The translations under genes and the position numbers were made by a program. DNA of 64,000 nt from Thermotoga caldifontis AZM44c09. Lineage in GTDB: Bacteria > Thermotogota > Thermotogae > Thermotogales > DSM-5069. The notes beneath the pieces are model-generated. The model made no database searches. It worked only from the letters and a program-made list of their open reading frames with translations, and was not told the DNA's origin. Positions within the stretch are counted from its first letter, which is position 1, and every line of letters begins with the position of its first letter. Positions 52,558-60,499 of this stretch are shown here, piece after piece. The DNA lies in the NCBI RefSeq assembly GCF_000828655.1, contig NZ_AP014509.1:930001-994000 (forward strand), written 5' to 3'.

Positions 52558-52605
52558 ACTTAACAGGTAAGAGAAGCAGCTTATTATGCATACCGGGGTG
52601 TTACC

Positions 52606-54434: not shown

Positions 54435-55234
54435 AGAACAGAACAACGCTCGAATGGTTGTTGACGTGCCCCGACCCAGAGGGAATTGAGGAGTTCCTTC
54501 TGGGTCTTAATTTTTTGAATTTTGCGATCGAACTGGCAGAAGGAGGTTCCGTGCTCCGAGTCTACACCTTTGATGAAGACACGATCAGAAAGCTTCAGGA
54601 ACGGTTCGGCTGTGAGTTGCTACAGAAAAGACCTACCCGGGAACGCGATTGGTTCGTTTACTTAAAACTCAAACCTTTCGAGATCGTCCCGGGGGTCTGG
54701 ATAGATCCAACTCACAGGTTCAAGAAGGACGCGGTAGTGATCAAGATGAGACCCAGTGCCGCCTTCGGCACGGGAGACCATCCCACGACCAAGCTGGTGG
54801 CGCGTGTGATGTACAACTATCTGAAGAGCAAAGACCGTGTGCTCGATGTCGGTTGTGGTACTGGGATCCTCTCCATCATCGCTAAGAAGCTCGGTGCGAA
54901 AAAGGTCGTTGCCGTCGACAACGATCCGATCGCGATAGAAATAGCCCGGCGTTTTTCCCGACTCAACCGTGTCCAGATAGAGGTCAAGCTGTCCGATCTG
55001 CTTGAAAACGTCTCAGGAACGTTCGACGTCGTGGTTGCGAATTTGACGAGCAATTTGGTAATATCACTTTTAGGACAGATCGACAGGGTGATTCACCGTA
55101 GATCGACGATCATCGTGTCCGGTATTCCCAGCACCGATGCCGAAAGGATAAAGACCGTGGCCCAGGAGAACTTCCAGATCCTGGAGGAGGTTGAACTGGA
55201 AAATTGGAAAGCGTTCGCCATGAAGAAGTTTTGA
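54431..55234 (+). CDS. prmA: Ribosomal protein L11 methyltransferase
   Basis: 267 residues. Class I methyltransferase core: R-P-S-A-A-F-G-T-G-D-H-P-T-T, V-L-D-V-G-C-G-T-G-I-L-S-I, V-D-N-D-P-I-A and V-A-N-L-T, the PrmA pattern. It trimethylates ribosomal protein L11. The GTG start overlaps the speE stop (GTGA), while the frame to 54110 is antisense-like filler within speE. A short N-terminal domain is typical of thermophilic PrmA. Confidence 0.95.
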   Translation: MKNRTTLEWLLTCPDPEGIEEFLLGLNFLNFAIELAEGGSVLRVYTFDEDTIRKLQERFGCELLQKRPTRERDWFVYLKLKPFEIVPGVWIDPTHRFKKDAVVIKMRPSAAFGTGDHPTTKLVARVMYNYLKSKDRVLDVGCGTGILSIIAKKLGAKKVVAVDNDPIAIEIARRFSRLNRVQIEVKLSDLLENVSGTFDVVVANLTSNLVISLLGQIDRVIHRRSTIIVSGIPSTDAERIKTVAQENFQILEEVELENWKAFAMKKF

Positions 55235-55746: not shown

Positions 55747-56304
55747 ATGCGCGACGAAGAACTCATCGAGGGATTGAGACGCGGTGATGAGAAAGCCTTT
55801 AGGATTCTCTACAGAGAGTACGCGGGAAAGATCGGGTCCATAGCGAGATCTTACCTGGGTTCCGATGACGTCGACGATGTGGTACAGGATGTGATGTTGA
55901 GAATCTTTAAAAGTATAAGGAAGTTCAAGGGAGACTCAAAGCTTTCAACGTGGATATACAGGATAACCGTCAACGTGTGTAAGGATTATCTGGCGAAGTA
56001 CAAAAGAAGGAGCGAAATTCTGACAGACTTTGCGGAAGACGAGGAACATCCGACCCAGCATCCTGTTTCAGAGATCGATACGGAAGAATCGGTTGTGGGC
56101 GAACTGGAGTACGAGAGGATCGTCAACGCGCTCGAGAAACTATCACCTGAAGATAGATTGCTCATCAAATTGCGTGACGTGGACGGTTTGAGTTACGAGG
56201 AAATAAGCAGGATCGTCTCAAAACCGATCGGAAGTGTCAAAAGCAGTCTACACTACGCGAGGAAGAGATTGAAGAAGTTGCTGGAGGAGGCTCACAATGA
56301 GTGA
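55747..56304 (+). CDS. ECF-type RNA polymerase sigma factor
   Basis: 185 residues: region 2 (F-R-I-L-Y-R-E-Y...D-D-V-D-D-V-V-Q-D-V-M-L-R-I-F, L-S-T-W-I-Y-R-I-T-V-N) and region 4 (L-S-P-E-D-R-L-L-I-K-L-R-D-V-D-G-L-S-Y-E-E-I-S-R-I-V). It directs RNA polymerase to a stress regulon. An acidic linker between the regions is long. ATG 55747 has GGAGGAAGAGG. The next gene overlaps by 8 bp and is a likely anti-sigma factor. Confidence 0.93.
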   Translation: MRDEELIEGLRRGDEKAFRILYREYAGKIGSIARSYLGSDDVDDVVQDVMLRIFKSIRKFKGDSKLSTWIYRITVNVCKDYLAKYKRRSEILTDFAEDEEHPTQHPVSEIDTEESVVGELEYERIVNALEKLSPEDRLLIKLRDVDGLSYEEISRIVSKPIGSVKSSLHYARKRLKKLLEEAHNE

Positions 56305-56650
56305 GGAAAAGTTCAACGGTTTTCTTGACGGTGAGCTCGACGAGAAGGACCTCGATGAAGTAACGAAACGTGAAGTAGAAATGTACTCCGAAGCTTTGAA
56401 GGTCTTCCGAATGAGATGTGACTACAGGCCGAGTGCGAAACTCGAAGAAAAAATCATGAGGAGATTCGTCAGACCACGTAGAATACTGTGGGAGCTCGCA
56501 ATCGGTGTCGCTGCCGCTGCAGCTGTGTTCTACGTCGTCTTCAACGTGCCGCCGAAACGGAACGTCGAGCCGCTGGTGCAGGAAGCTAAAGTCGTATCCG
56601 AACTCTTCGATTATTTGAGCTTGGTCAAGCTGGTCGGGGATGGATTTTGA
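56297..56650 (+). CDS. Putative membrane anti-sigma factor
   Basis: 117 residues: a charged cytoplasmic N-terminal part (about 1-60) beginning with F-N-G-F-L-D-G-E-L as in many anti-sigma domains, one TM helix (about 64-82, L-A-I-G-V-A-A-A-A-A-V-F-Y-V-V-F) and a short external tail. The ZAS zinc motif HxxxCxxC is absent. It should hold the sigma factor at the membrane. Overlap with the sigma gene and an exported third gene support the call. Confidence 0.72.
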   Translation: MSEEKFNGFLDGELDEKDLDEVTKREVEMYSEALKVFRMRCDYRPSAKLEEKIMRRFVRPRRILWELAIGVAAAAAVFYVVFNVPPKRNVEPLVQEAKVVSELFDYLSLVKLVGDGF

Positions 56651-56672: not shown

Positions 56673-57491
56673 ATGAAGAGAACGCTGTTCTCGATTTTTG
56701 TAGTTGTTGTCGCGAGCTTTGCCCTCGCACAGTCTTTTATAGAGTTGTATCTGAACTCGTCCTATTTTGGCAGGAGGATTGTGGTCGAAAAGGGGCCCAC
56801 GAACAAGAGCCGGATCGAGATGGTCTACAGATGGCCCAACGATAAGATCGTTCATGTCCTTGATCCTGTGTTCCTCGTCTGGGCGAAGCACTCTGAATTG
56901 TTCATCATGGGACAGCCGAACAACTATCGGAATTCCCCACTGGAGATACTCGATCTGGAGGATCTTTTCATCAGGCAGCTGAAAGAGCGGGGGATAACGA
57001 AACTGGAGAAGCTGGGTAACAAGTACAAAGTCACCGTGGAATCGCCGTCTGGTCTGTTCACCGCGTTCATCAGTGAAACGGGACTGCCGGAGAAAATCAT
57101 CAGGGTTTTCAACAACGTAACAACGGAGCTGACCTACGAACACGTCGAGCCCCTGAAGGAAACCTTTGAACAGGTGGCGCAGCGCTACGGAATCAAATCT
57201 GCCGAGCAAACCATCAACCTCCCGAGCGAAATAAAGTTGATCCTGGGCAGTGTGAACTGGTACACGGTGTCGAGGTTGAACGTCGGAGAAGAACAGGTTC
57301 TCATGATCATCGCGAACCACAAGTCGGGTTCCGTCATAAAAATGGTCTGTTCCACCAGGGAAGTGACCGTCAACACGGAGCAGAACGAGCAGCTGCTCAG
57401 GATCAGGGGTGAAAATTATTACCTCTACGTCATAGCGCAGGATCAGTCAGTCCTGGAACAGGTGAAGGAACTCCTCACCAAGGAGAGATGA
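56673..57491 (+). CDS. Exported RseB/MucB-like or LolA-fold protein
   Basis: 272 residues. Signal peptide (R-T-L-F-S-I-F-V-V-V-V-A-S-F-A-L-A-Q). The mature part begins like a RseB/LolA-type sheet (R-I-V-V-E-K-G-P-T-N-K-S-R-I-E-M-V-Y), with a small C-terminal domain after about residue 180. In other bacteria RseB binds the anti-sigma factor and senses envelope damage; position after sigma and anti-sigma genes makes that a fair guess. It overlaps the next gene by 4 nt (ATGA). Confidence 0.6.
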   Translation: MKRTLFSIFVVVVASFALAQSFIELYLNSSYFGRRIVVEKGPTNKSRIEMVYRWPNDKIVHVLDPVFLVWAKHSELFIMGQPNNYRNSPLEILDLEDLFIRQLKERGITKLEKLGNKYKVTVESPSGLFTAFISETGLPEKIIRVFNNVTTELTYEHVEPLKETFEQVAQRYGIKSAEQTINLPSEIKLILGSVNWYTVSRLNVGEEQVLMIIANHKSGSVIKMVCSTREVTVNTEQNEQLLRIRGENYYLYVIAQDQSVLEQVKELLTKER

Positions 57492-59152
57492 ATCGATCGA
57501 GGATGCGCGCACTGATAATCGATGGTTACGTGGATGAACCTGCCGCACTGGGTGTGCCCCCATACGTTAGCCACTACGTTCGATACGCCGCAGGTATTTT
57601 AACGATGAAAAACTTTTCAGTTGACTATCTCACGATAGATCAACTGCGCGGTTTCACTGACCTTGAGATGTTGAAAGGTTACGAACTCGTTCTCATCGTT
57701 GGTGGCGTCGCTGTACCCGGAAAATACGTTGGTGGCGAGCCGATCAAGCCGTTCGAAGTCGAAAAGATCTTCAAAAGTTTGCCTCCTTCCTGTTTGCGTT
57801 TGCTGGCAGGACCTTACGCCCGCTTCCAAGCAGTCCGAGGCGGAACGTTCGCGACAACAAAGGTTCTGGGTGCCGATGCGTGTCTCGGACCAGACCTGGC
57901 GGTGGAACTGTACAATTTTCTGTTCAACGCTGAGCGACAGAAAAACGACTGGAGCCTGGTGAGGCAGGCGAGTGTGCTCGGCGCCGGTGTTATCAAGCAG
58001 CATCCGCGTTATCCTAACATCATCTGCGAGGTAGAGCTTTCCAGAGGTTGTGAGAGACGAACGCACTGCTCTTTCTGCATCGAACCCGTGTTCTATCCGA
58101 AGTTCACTTCCAGGCCTGTTGAAGATGTGGTCGAAGAAGTGGCAGAACTCTACAGGCAGGGCTGCAGGGCCTTCAGGTTCGGTCGATCGGCCAACGTTCT
58201 GGCGTACTGTTCTGAGAGGAATGCGGGCAGACCTGTTCCAGAGGTGTTCGAAGAGTTGTATCAAGGCGTAAGGAGCAGTTGTCCCGAACTGGAAGTCCTT
58301 CACCACGACAACGCGAACCCGATGTACATCGTACAGTACGAGAAAGAGTGCCGCAGAATACTTGAAACGATGGTCAAATACAACACACCTGCCGACGTGC
58401 TGTCTTTCGGTGTGGAGAGCTTCGACGTCAACGTGCTGAGAAAAAACAACATAGCGAACGAACCAGAAAAAATCCTGAGGGCGATCGAGATCGTCAACGA
58501 GATAGGTGCCACGAGGGTCGATGGCGTTCCGAAGCTGTTGCCCGGGCTGAATTTGCTCTACGGTTTGATCGGCGAAACAGAGCAGACTTACGAAGAGAAC
58601 CTGAAATGGCTCAGAAAGATTCTCGAACGGGGGCTGCTCGTGAGGAGGATAAACATCAGGCAGGTGATCGTCGAACCCGGAACACCGCTGTGGCGTTACG
58701 CGCAGATCAAGAAGCTGAAGGGGCCCGATCCAAGGCTTTACAAAGTTTACAAAGAGATCGTCCGGCGCGAGATAGACGTTCCCATGTTCAGACGGGTCGT
58801 TCCAGAAGGCAGCGTGCTCAGAAAGGTTTATCCTGAGTATCGTGAAGGCAGAATCACCTTCGCTCGCCAGCTGGGTACGTACCCCTTCCTGGTGGGCGTC
58901 GTTGGAAAGATAGAGAATCCAGTGGACGTGGTCATCGTGGACCACGGCCCGAGGTCTCTCACGGCACTGAAGTACCCTGTGAATCTGAACACGGCGAGTC
59001 ACGATGAACTCAAGCATCTGCCCGGGATCGGTGAGAAGAGGGCGAGCAGGATAATCCTTTCCCGTCCGATCCGAAGTTACGAGCATCTCAAAGAGATCCT
59101 GGAAGATGAACTAATCTTCGAGAGACTCCGGCGGATCGGTGTCGTGTTATGA
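57488..59152 (+). CDS. Radical SAM protein with C-terminal helix-hairpin-helix domain
   Basis: 554 residues: N-terminal cobalamin-binding-like Rossmann region (about 1-150), radical SAM core with R-G-C-E-R-R-T-H-C-S-F-C (C188, C194, C197; CX5CX2C in place of CX3CX2C), and a ComEA-like HhH (N-L-N-T-A-S-H-D-E-L...L-P-G-I-G-E-K-R-A-S-R-I) from about residue 499. The HhH suggests nucleic-acid contact. I recall a similar uncharacterised group in archaea and thermophiles. Coupled to the RseB-like gene. Confidence 0.85.
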   Translation: MNRSRMRALIIDGYVDEPAALGVPPYVSHYVRYAAGILTMKNFSVDYLTIDQLRGFTDLEMLKGYELVLIVGGVAVPGKYVGGEPIKPFEVEKIFKSLPPSCLRLLAGPYARFQAVRGGTFATTKVLGADACLGPDLAVELYNFLFNAERQKNDWSLVRQASVLGAGVIKQHPRYPNIICEVELSRGCERRTHCSFCIEPVFYPKFTSRPVEDVVEEVAELYRQGCRAFRFGRSANVLAYCSERNAGRPVPEVFEELYQGVRSSCPELEVLHHDNANPMYIVQYEKECRRILETMVKYNTPADVLSFGVESFDVNVLRKNNIANEPEKILRAIEIVNEIGATRVDGVPKLLPGLNLLYGLIGETEQTYEENLKWLRKILERGLLVRRINIRQVIVEPGTPLWRYAQIKKLKGPDPRLYKVYKEIVRREIDVPMFRRVVPEGSVLRKVYPEYREGRITFARQLGTYPFLVGVVGKIENPVDVVIVDHGPRSLTALKYPVNLNTASHDELKHLPGIGEKRASRIILSRPIRSYEHLKEILEDELIFERLRRIGVVL

Positions 59153-59177
59153 TGGGATTCTGAGGAGGGGACGGATC

Positions 59178-60443
59178 TTGAAATACGAAAGGATCAAAGG
59201 CACACAGGATGTGTTCGGCGAAGAGGTGAACTACTGGTACTTCATCGAGGAGAACGCTCGCATGGTTGCGAACCTTTATGGGTACGAGGAGATAAGGACC
59301 CCCATAATAGAGCCCACCGAACTCTTCGTGAGGAGCGTCGGAGAAGAAACAGACATCGTTCAGAAGGAGATGTACACGTTCACGGACAAGGGTGGTCGAA
59401 GCATCACGCTCAGACCCGAAGGCACGGCACCCACGGTTCGTGCGTTCATAGAGAATTCTCTGATCAACGAGGGACTGCCCCAGAGATTCTTCTACATAGG
59501 CCCGATGTTCCGTTACGAGAGACCCCAGGCGGGGCGCTTGAGACAGTTCCACCAGTTCGGTGTTGAACTCATCGGTTCAGCGCATCCGTCTGCAGATGTA
59601 GAAGTTCTGCTTGTTGCAAAACACTTCCTTGACAGGATTGGCGTTCGTGACTATGTGGTGCATTTGAATTCGATCGGCTGTCCCAGGTGCAGACCCACGT
59701 ACAGACAGAAGCTGAAAGAGTACTACGAGTCGCATTTCGACCAGCTTTGTGACGATTGCAAACGTCGCCTGAACACGAACGTGCTCAGGCTGCTCGACTG
59801 CAAGATCGATGCAGCTCTTGCCGAGGGAGCACCGAAATCGTTCGAGTTCCTCTGTGATGATTGTCGCGCGCACTACGAGGAGTTGAAACAGAGGCTCATC
59901 GATCTGAAGTTCGAATTCGTCGAGGATGGAACGCTCGTCAGGGGGTTGGACTATTACACGAGGACCGTCTTTGAAGTGAGGCACAGAGAACTCGGTGCCC
60001 AGAACACGATCCTGGCTGGGGGAAGGTACGACGGCCTGTTCGAAGAACTCGGGGGACAATCCACACCTGCGCTCGGTTTTGCCAGTGGTATAGAGAGGCT
60101 CATCCTCACGTTGAAGAACCAGGGTGTACAGGTTGCTCGGAAGGAAAAGTGCTCTGTGTACATCGCAACCTTGGGATTGAAAGCTTCGATCGAGGGGTTC
60201 AGGATCGCCGAAGAGCTGAGGAAAAAGGGTGTGTCGGTCGTCACGGATGTCAACGATAGAAAGCTCAACGCCCAGTTGAAGCACGCGAACAAACTGGGTG
60301 CCAAACTGGCTGTGATTCTCGGTGAAGACGAGCTGGCAAGATCGATCGCCCACGTGAAACTGCTCGAGAACTTCACTCAGGTGGAAGTCAGCCTCGATGT
60401 GGTGGTTGAATACGTGATCGAGTTGCTTCGTTCCCGCACCTGA
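59178..60443 (+). CDS. hisS: Histidyl-tRNA synthetase
   Basis: 421 residues of a class II synthetase. K-G-T-Q-D-V-F at the N-terminus, motif 2 F-R-Y-E-R-P-Q-A-G-R-L-R-Q-F-H-Q-F-G, His signature L-V-R-G-L-D-Y-Y-T-R-T-V-F-E and motif 3 A-L-G-F-A-S-G-I-E-R-L. TTG 59178, with GAGGAGGGG upstream, gives the standard length; the ATG at 59139 would be inside the end of the radical SAM gene. Followed by a hairpin terminator. Confidence 0.97.
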   Translation: MKYERIKGTQDVFGEEVNYWYFIEENARMVANLYGYEEIRTPIIEPTELFVRSVGEETDIVQKEMYTFTDKGGRSITLRPEGTAPTVRAFIENSLINEGLPQRFFYIGPMFRYERPQAGRLRQFHQFGVELIGSAHPSADVEVLLVAKHFLDRIGVRDYVVHLNSIGCPRCRPTYRQKLKEYYESHFDQLCDDCKRRLNTNVLRLLDCKIDAALAEGAPKSFEFLCDDCRAHYEELKQRLIDLKFEFVEDGTLVRGLDYYTRTVFEVRHRELGAQNTILAGGRYDGLFEELGGQSTPALGFASGIERLILTLKNQGVQVARKEKCSVYIATLGLKASIEGFRIAEELRKKGVSVVTDVNDRKLNAQLKHANKLGAKLAVILGEDELARSIAHVKLLENFTQVEVSLDVVVEYVIELLRSRT

Positions 60444-60476
60444 GACCCGGATTCACCTCACGTTGAAAAAACGATA

Positions 60477-60499
60477 GCCCCACGGTGGGGCCAATTTTT
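60477..60499 (+). terminator. Rho-independent terminator after hisS
   Basis: GCCCCA / TGGGGC stem with a CGG loop followed by CAA and five T. On the minus strand a T6 run lies 5 nt beyond the stem (60466-60471), so it may serve glyA as well. Confidence 0.75.

What the first reader, a model, noticed from the sequence alone, without database searches (positions are those of the whole stretch)
57488..59152. Radical SAM-HhH protein with CX5CX2C cluster, joined to the ECF stress unit
The [4Fe-4S] Cys spacing is expanded (C188-x5-C194-x2-C197), with a C-terminal DNA/RNA-binding HhH. Its ATGA overlap with the RseB-like gene suggests it belongs to the sigma regulon or is co-expressed with it.
Basis: partly seen in the sequence, partly recalled or inferred. 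Interest (0 to 1): 0.5.

Follow-up and report, generated by a model that had tools for sequence, protein, structure and literature searches.

The report
Conserved radical-SAM enzyme with HhH tail
A heat-loving bacterium carries a well-conserved enzyme of unknown job that probably uses radical chemistry to alter RNA; it looks like an ordinary member of an unstudied family, but it is a possible maker of a ribosomal RNA modification whose enzyme and structure are still unknown.

Summary
In detail: window 57488-59152 encodes a 554-aa radical SAM protein with C188-x5-C194-x2-C197 and a C-terminal helix-hairpin-helix. All three Cys are invariant in 57 homologues, but the spacing is no signature: 3, 5, 6 or 7 residues between the first two Cys, and the haloarchaeal homologue has canonical CX3CX2C. 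The HhH is absent in 7 of 57. N-terminal domain plus barrel resemble cobalamin-type radical SAM methylases and MiaB (low-confidence model). It is a core gene of its phylum (87 of 103 genomes). It sits behind the sigma unit in 16 of 16 Thermotogales loci but 0 of 35 others: lineage-specific synteny. 'RseB-like' found no support. Best reading: an RNA-modifying radical SAM enzyme. Boldest untested reading: it makes N-330, the unidentified cytidine at 16S position 1404 reported in Thermotoga maritima and Haloferax volcanii. In passing: B12-radical-SAM family TIGR04013 rings, of 14 control genomes, only in three for which hn6A is reported.

The parts
57488..59152 (+). radical SAM-HhH protein, 554 aa as listed (start possibly M6 at 57503)
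57503..57928 (+). N-terminal alpha/beta (Rossmann-like) domain, residues about 6-147; conserved D12, E17, P18, GVPPY 22-26, R32, Y47, R54, G73, G108
58034..58612 (+). Radical_SAM barrel core, residues 183-375 (PF04055)
58049..58078 (+). C188-x5-C194-x2-C197, presumed [4Fe-4S]-SAM site; all three Cys invariant in 57 of 57
58775..58963 (+). conserved C-terminal region before the HhH, residues about 430-492 (R460, Y465, R489 invariant); TRAM/OB-like by eye only
   Evidence: TRAM not confirmed
58976..59098 (+). helix-hairpin-helix, residues 497-537 (HHH_3)
55747..56304 (+). ECF sigma factor (context)
56297..56650 (+). short protein with one hydrophobic stretch in the anti-sigma position (context; assignment by position)
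56673..57491 (+).
59139..60443 (+). hisS, histidyl-tRNA synthetase ORF (context; downstream only in family f1)

Best explanation
It is a housekeeping radical SAM enzyme of Thermotogota that chemically alters a nucleobase in RNA. The three Cys bind a [4Fe-4S] cluster that cleaves SAM to a 5'-deoxyadenosyl radical (inferred from the superfamily); the N-terminal Rossmann-like domain, of the type in cobalamin-dependent radical SAM methylases and in MiaB, caps the barrel and may hold a second cofactor or be structural only (inferred); the C-terminal region and HhH hold the RNA (inferred). The conserved location behind the ECF sigma factor in Thermotogales is taken as operon packing, not function.
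For: Radical_SAM over cut-off and three invariant Cys, 57 of 57. HhH over cut-off; HhH region present in 50 of 57. Profile match to a TIGR04013 set, HH probability 99.5, E 3.4e-22, and to Thermotogota methylthiotransferases, 98.3, E 2.1e-14. Fold: MgmA (9ccb) Z 14.6 over 307 residues at 4.4 A, MiaB with RNA (7mjy) 13.9, OxsB 13.7. Core gene with a vertical pattern: 87 of 103 phylum genomes at E<=1e-30; all 42 Thermotogota rows on one side of a branch at 99/90. A distant homologue in Streptomyces plasmids sits in a cassette with a nucleoside 2-deoxyribosyltransferase, a PfkB kinase, a P-loop kinase-like protein and MazG, i.e. nucleoside chemistry. In Natronorubrum the next gene encodes a TRAM-domain protein.
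Against: No substrate is shown. The models are weak (mean pLDDT 49.8 for the whole, 46.3 for the C-terminus; two-sequence alignments). HhH commonly binds DNA (recalled), and 7 of 57 homologues lack it, so it is not needed for the reaction itself. TRAM not confirmed: HH E 0.51 against methylthiotransferase TRAMs, PF01938 in only 1 of 53 members at E 0.046. No conserved gene neighbour across orders points to RNA. The best-matching solved structure, MgmA, modifies a protein.
Confidence: 0.5

Rival explanations
1. It is a cobalamin-dependent C-methylase, acting on a protein (as MgmA does on methyl-coenzyme M reductase) or on a ribosome component, using the N-terminal domain for B12.
For: Fold matches led by B12-type enzymes MgmA, OxsB, CysS, TokK; closest profile TIGR04013.
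Against: PF02310 B12-binding is not among the 25 of 35 Pfam families shown for the 53 members at E<=1; the N-domain alone against the TIGR04013 N-domain gives only HH probability 12.3; MiaB and AprD4 score about as well as the B12 enzymes.
Confidence: 0.25
2. It makes hn6A in tRNA by methylating the threonyl methyl group of t6A37.
For: T. maritima tRNA contains hn6A, pathway unknown (PMC6313347 passage); origin of hydroxynorvaline unknown (PMC10702137 passages).
Against: A homologue occurs in a haloarchaeon, and the H. volcanii modification inventory has 0 occurrences of hn6A in its main text (PMC2584109). TIGR04013 fits the reported hn6A organisms better.
Confidence: 0.07
3. It acts on DNA, in repair or DNA modification, with the HhH as DNA-binding module.
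For: The HhH region matches ComEA-type and rSAM_link_UDG profiles; HhH is commonly a DNA-binding module (recalled); the Streptomyces cassette (L093) has an HhH-GPD-like protein at E 0.0007, below cut-off.
Against: The HhH is a small common motif that also binds RNA or protein (recalled); HhH-GPD was not found by Pfam in the L095 counterpart; no DNA-repair neighbour was recognised among the neighbour clusters, though most neighbours were not annotated.
Confidence: 0.12

Closest known systems
COG1031, 'radical SAM superfamily enzyme with C-terminal helix-hairpin-helix' (name recalled, not from a call)
   Same: same domain order as in the recalled name; probably the same family
   Different: no model of it in the libraries searched; function unassigned as far as recalled; no held paper contains 'COG1031'
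MgmA, methyl-coenzyme M reductase glutamine methylase (PDB 9ccb)
   Same: N-terminal Rossmann-like domain plus barrel; Z 14.6, sequence match E 2.4e-8
   Different: protein substrate; shorter (450 aa), match does not reach the HhH
Methylthiotransferases MiaB/MtaB/RimO
   Same: radical SAM core, RNA substrate for MiaB; HH 98.3, Z 13.9
   Different: the three N-terminal cluster Cys are absent here: in residues 1-160 no Cys column exceeds 10 of 57; TRAM not confirmed
TIGR04013 (MJ_1487-type B12/radical SAM protein)
   Same: closest profile, HH 99.5
   Different: a separate gene in this genome at G000:C1:507679-508785; this protein scores 45.5 against a cut-off of 251
HmdB (CX5CX2C radical SAM enzyme; recalled)
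   Same: same Cys spacing
   Different: spacing only; not compared in any call, and spacing varies 3-7 within this family

Membership tests
Radical SAM superfamily | Radical_SAM domain over cut-off with three cluster Cys | tested here: met
   50.8 bits vs 29.5; Cys invariant 57 of 57
Radical SAM superfamily | [4Fe-4S] cluster and SAM cleavage | not testable with these tools
   needs purified protein
Helix-hairpin-helix proteins | HhH motif at the C-terminus | tested here: met
   PF12836 35.7 vs 27; region present in 50 of 57 homologues, 45 with a GxG-like hairpin
Helix-hairpin-helix proteins | HhH fold in a model | tested here: inconclusive
   C-terminal model mean pLDDT 46.3
Cobalamin-dependent radical SAM methylases | N-terminal B12-binding domain | tested here: inconclusive
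   fold matches but no PF02310 match shown and N-domain profile probability 12.3
Methylthiotransferases | three conserved N-terminal Cys for the auxiliary cluster (recalled feature) | tested here: not met
   in residues 1-160 no Cys column exceeds 10 of 57
Methylthiotransferases | TRAM domain | tested here: inconclusive
   HH E 0.51; 1 of 53 members at E 0.046
TIGR04013 | score over curated cut-off 251 bits | tested here: not met
   45.5 bits
COG1031 | match to the COG profile | not testable with these tools
   profile not held
ECF sigma regulon member | sigma-dependent promoter or expression | not testable with these tools
   only synteny: 16 of 16 Thermotogales loci, 0 of 35 others
RseB (for the upstream gene) | match to an RseB family model or structure | tested here: inconclusive
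   no RseB match in 17 members or PDB sequences; no fold made

The most novel reading that the evidence does not exclude
This family makes N-330, the cytidine derivative of unknown structure (Mr 330.117) at position 1404 of 16S rRNA, in the ribosomal decoding region. N-330 is reported in T. maritima and H. volcanii (PMC2584109); the enzyme family is core in Thermotogota and present in a haloarchaeon. The mass fits cytidine + C3H5NO2, an amino-acid-sized addition, and in P. abyssi the residue at this position was tentatively modelled as hm5C, i.e. with a C5 substituent (PMC7005279), as a radical C-C bond at C5 would leave.
Probability: 0.18. Interest if true: 0.78.

Novelty: new member of a known kind. 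Interest (0 to 1): 0.4.

Why it matters
As it stands this is a well-conserved orphan enzyme, worth annotating correctly: not a stress-regulon oddity. If the N-330 reading were true it would give the enzyme for a decoding-centre modification shared by Thermotoga and archaea whose structure and enzyme were unknown in the papers read, and it would be testable by one gene deletion in Haloferax plus mass spectrometry of 16S rRNA.

Tried and rejected
CX5CX2C as a signature: rejected, spacing varies 3-7. TRAM domain before the HhH: seen by eye and hinted by the HH alignment of full lengths, but region-only comparison gave E 0.51 and 0.4; left as unproven. 'RseB-like': no match. hn6A as the product: set aside in favour of TIGR04013. 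tsaD next door in family f9 (loci L058-L063, L072): tsaD and clpX run on the opposite strand to RS and were named from their sequence by eye, so not taken as evidence. Viral contigs: no relative found. PHROGs and PADLOC: no match for the window protein. Foldseek on the weak full model gave mostly unrelated barrels below the top rows. A promoter scan found one forward sigma-70-like site at 52560-52587 before the HTH gene, but 3 sites in all were found against 4.7 expected in shuffles, so it is no evidence; terminator-like sites on both strands follow hisS at 60475-60493.

The N-330 reading has these points against it: presence of the gene in H. volcanii itself was not tested (one haloarchaeon only, from a plasmid record); PMC2584109 says N-330 is in 'many Bacteria', whereas only 11 of 287 sampled bacterial genomes outside Thermotogota had the gene at E<=1e-30; nine near-complete Thermotogota genomes (G035-G037, G047-G052) lack it.

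Rows dropped: for conservation counts I used the window, L003, the loci L033-L083 and four plasmid rows (57 in all) and left out L004-L032 (further genome-search loci, many from genomes or genera already represented). Of the five plasmid hits I fetched four (H1, H2, H4, H5). In one search I picked the wrong ORF (ClpX-like) for L084; redone.

Full report
What is there. The window lies in a 2.01-Mb genome as G000:C1:930001-994000; the nearest named relative of the protein is in a Pseudothermotoga MAG (L003, 80% identity). The ORF at 57488-59152 encodes 554 aa with C188-x5-C194-x2-C197, a Radical_SAM domain at 183-375 and an HhH at 497-537. No NCBIfam model reaches its cut-off for it; the best are TIGR04013 (45.5 of 251 bits) and methylthiotransferase models. 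The only other own-genome match is E 2.4e-5, so there is no close paralogue.

Distribution. In Thermotogota 95 of 103 genomes had a match at E<=1e-3, but several of those are only weak matches of the radical SAM domain; at E<=1e-30 it is 87 of 103, plus 11 of 287 sampled bacterial genomes outside the phylum (98 of 390 in all). Nine near-complete genomes of family f10 (G035, G036, G037, G047-G052) lack it. In PLSDB there are five records: a haloarchaeon, Natronorubrum bangense (40% identity, 95% coverage), and four Streptomyces plasmids (32-33%); the three Streptomyces rows that I aligned end before the HhH. A tree of 57 rows puts all 42 Thermotogota rows on one side of a branch with support 99/90, as expected for vertical descent.

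Cys spacing and conserved residues. Among 57 homologues the number of residues between Cys1 and Cys2 is 5 in 38, 6 in 16, 7 in 2 (L079, L081) and 3 in one (Natronorubrum, RGCAYRCSFC). Thus the cluster loop varies in length and the haloarchaeal form is canonical. All three Cys are invariant, and so are G108, E181, G187, R209, E217, R230, G232, H272, D274, N275, G308, E310, V316, G353, N355, G359, L360, R387, N389, R391, R460, Y465 and R489. No other Cys column is broadly conserved (C180 in 29 of 57 is the next), which speaks against a methylthiotransferase-type auxiliary cluster. The HhH region is present in 50 of 57 and missing in L052, L053, L082, L083 and the three Streptomyces rows.

Fold. 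With only the window protein and L003 in the alignment, AlphaFold2 gave a weak model (mean pLDDT 49.8; N-terminal blocks up to 89). Even so, a structural re-alignment puts radical SAM enzymes with an N-terminal Rossmann-like domain well above the rest: MgmA 9ccb Z 14.6 (307 residues, 4.4 A), MiaB 7mjy 13.9, OxsB 5ul3 13.7, CysS 9n1d 13.0, TokK 12.9, AprD4 12.6, TsrM 11.5, then a drop to 7.9. Profile comparison agrees: TIGR04013 set HH 99.5, E 3.4e-22; methylthiotransferases 98.3, E 2.1e-14. The N-domains alone do not match significantly (probability 12.3 and 9.5). The C-terminal part alone gave pLDDT 46.3; a TRAM-like domain there is a visual impression that did not survive a direct test.

Gene context. 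In all 16 Thermotogales loci examined (families f1-f3, L033-L048) the gene follows an ECF sigma gene and the cluster of the 272-aa protein; the anti-sigma cluster was recognised in 12 of 16. In the 24 other Thermotogota loci (L049-L072) and the 11 loci outside the phylum (L073-L083) neither the sigma nor the 272-aa cluster was found. hisS follows only in family f1 (5 of 16). Junctions are tight (short overlaps or gaps), but tight junctions are normal: median gap 4 nt in this window, and a published median of 5 bp in T. maritima (PMC3636130, passage). The sigma gene is itself preceded by DUF501, prmA, speE, speD and an HTH-cupin gene on the same strand. So shared transcription is plausible, membership of a stress regulon is not shown, and the sigma link cannot tell what the enzyme does.

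Likely function. I commit to an RNA-modifying radical SAM enzyme, probability about 0.5. Shown: domains, invariant cluster Cys, relationship to cobalamin-type and MiaB-type enzymes, core-gene status. Inferred: cluster, SAM cleavage, RNA as substrate, role of the HhH.

The boldest reading concerns N-330. PMC2584109 (passages only) states that a modified cytidine of unknown structure, Mr 330.117, lies at 16S position 1404 (E. coli numbering) in H. volcanii, that it is also found in T. maritima, and that its gene needed to be discovered. I recalled Guymon et al. 2007 for the T. maritima part; that paper is not held. Mass arithmetic gives cytidine + C3H5NO2 within 0.5 mDa; one other nitrogen-rule-compatible composition within 6 mDa contains sulfur. 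PMC7005279 (passages) models hm5C tentatively at this position in P. abyssi and notes the unknown modification in some archaea. The phyletic fit (Thermotogota plus a haloarchaeon) is the only link to this family; it is suggestive and weak. Ten literature searches, of which concern this position, showed no paper assigning an enzyme to N-330 in the listings seen; the library is open-access only.

Side finding. TIGR04013 at E<=1e-60 rings in exactly T. maritima, M. jannaschii and M. acetivorans of 14 control genomes. hn6A or ms2hn6A is reported in M. jannaschii and M. acetivorans (PMC10702137 passages) and hn6A in T. maritima (PMC6313347 passage), pathway unknown. Methylation of the threonyl methyl group of t6A would give hn6A, and B12-radical-SAM enzymes do that kind of chemistry (recalled). 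No held paper contains the identifiers searched. Whether the other 11 control organisms lack hn6A was not checked.

Noticed in passing
G000:C1:507679-508785 (outside the window), L084: TIGR04013 B12/radical SAM protein; of 14 control genomes it rings at 1e-60 only in T. maritima, M. jannaschii and M. acetivorans, all three with hn6A or ms2hn6A reported: candidate t6A-to-hn6A C-methylase.
   Followed up: partly
L093:11986-17678, L095:11986-17640: Streptomyces plasmid cassette: distant homologue of this protein, Asp/Glu-racemase-like protein, unknown protein, PfkB kinase, nucleoside 2-deoxyribosyltransferase, P-loop kinase-like protein and MazG-like protein in the same order in both annotated loci; looks like a pathway for a modified nucleotide.
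   Followed up: partly
56297-56650: The protein in the anti-sigma position ends in -DGF or -DGW in 13 of 13 aligned members (11 F, 2 W), a conserved extreme C-terminus that could be a protease recognition tail.
   Followed up: no
54473-54506: Terminator-like hairpin (15 pairs, T-rich tail) inside the 5' part of the prmA coding sequence; possibly an intragenic terminator.
   Followed up: no
L092:8983-11236: In Natronorubrum bangense the homologue is followed by a TRAM-domain gene (PF01938 E 3.8e-17).
   Followed up: no
L058-L063, L072: In family f9 the gene stands divergent to a clpX-tsaD-like pair (named by eye from sequence).
   Followed up: no
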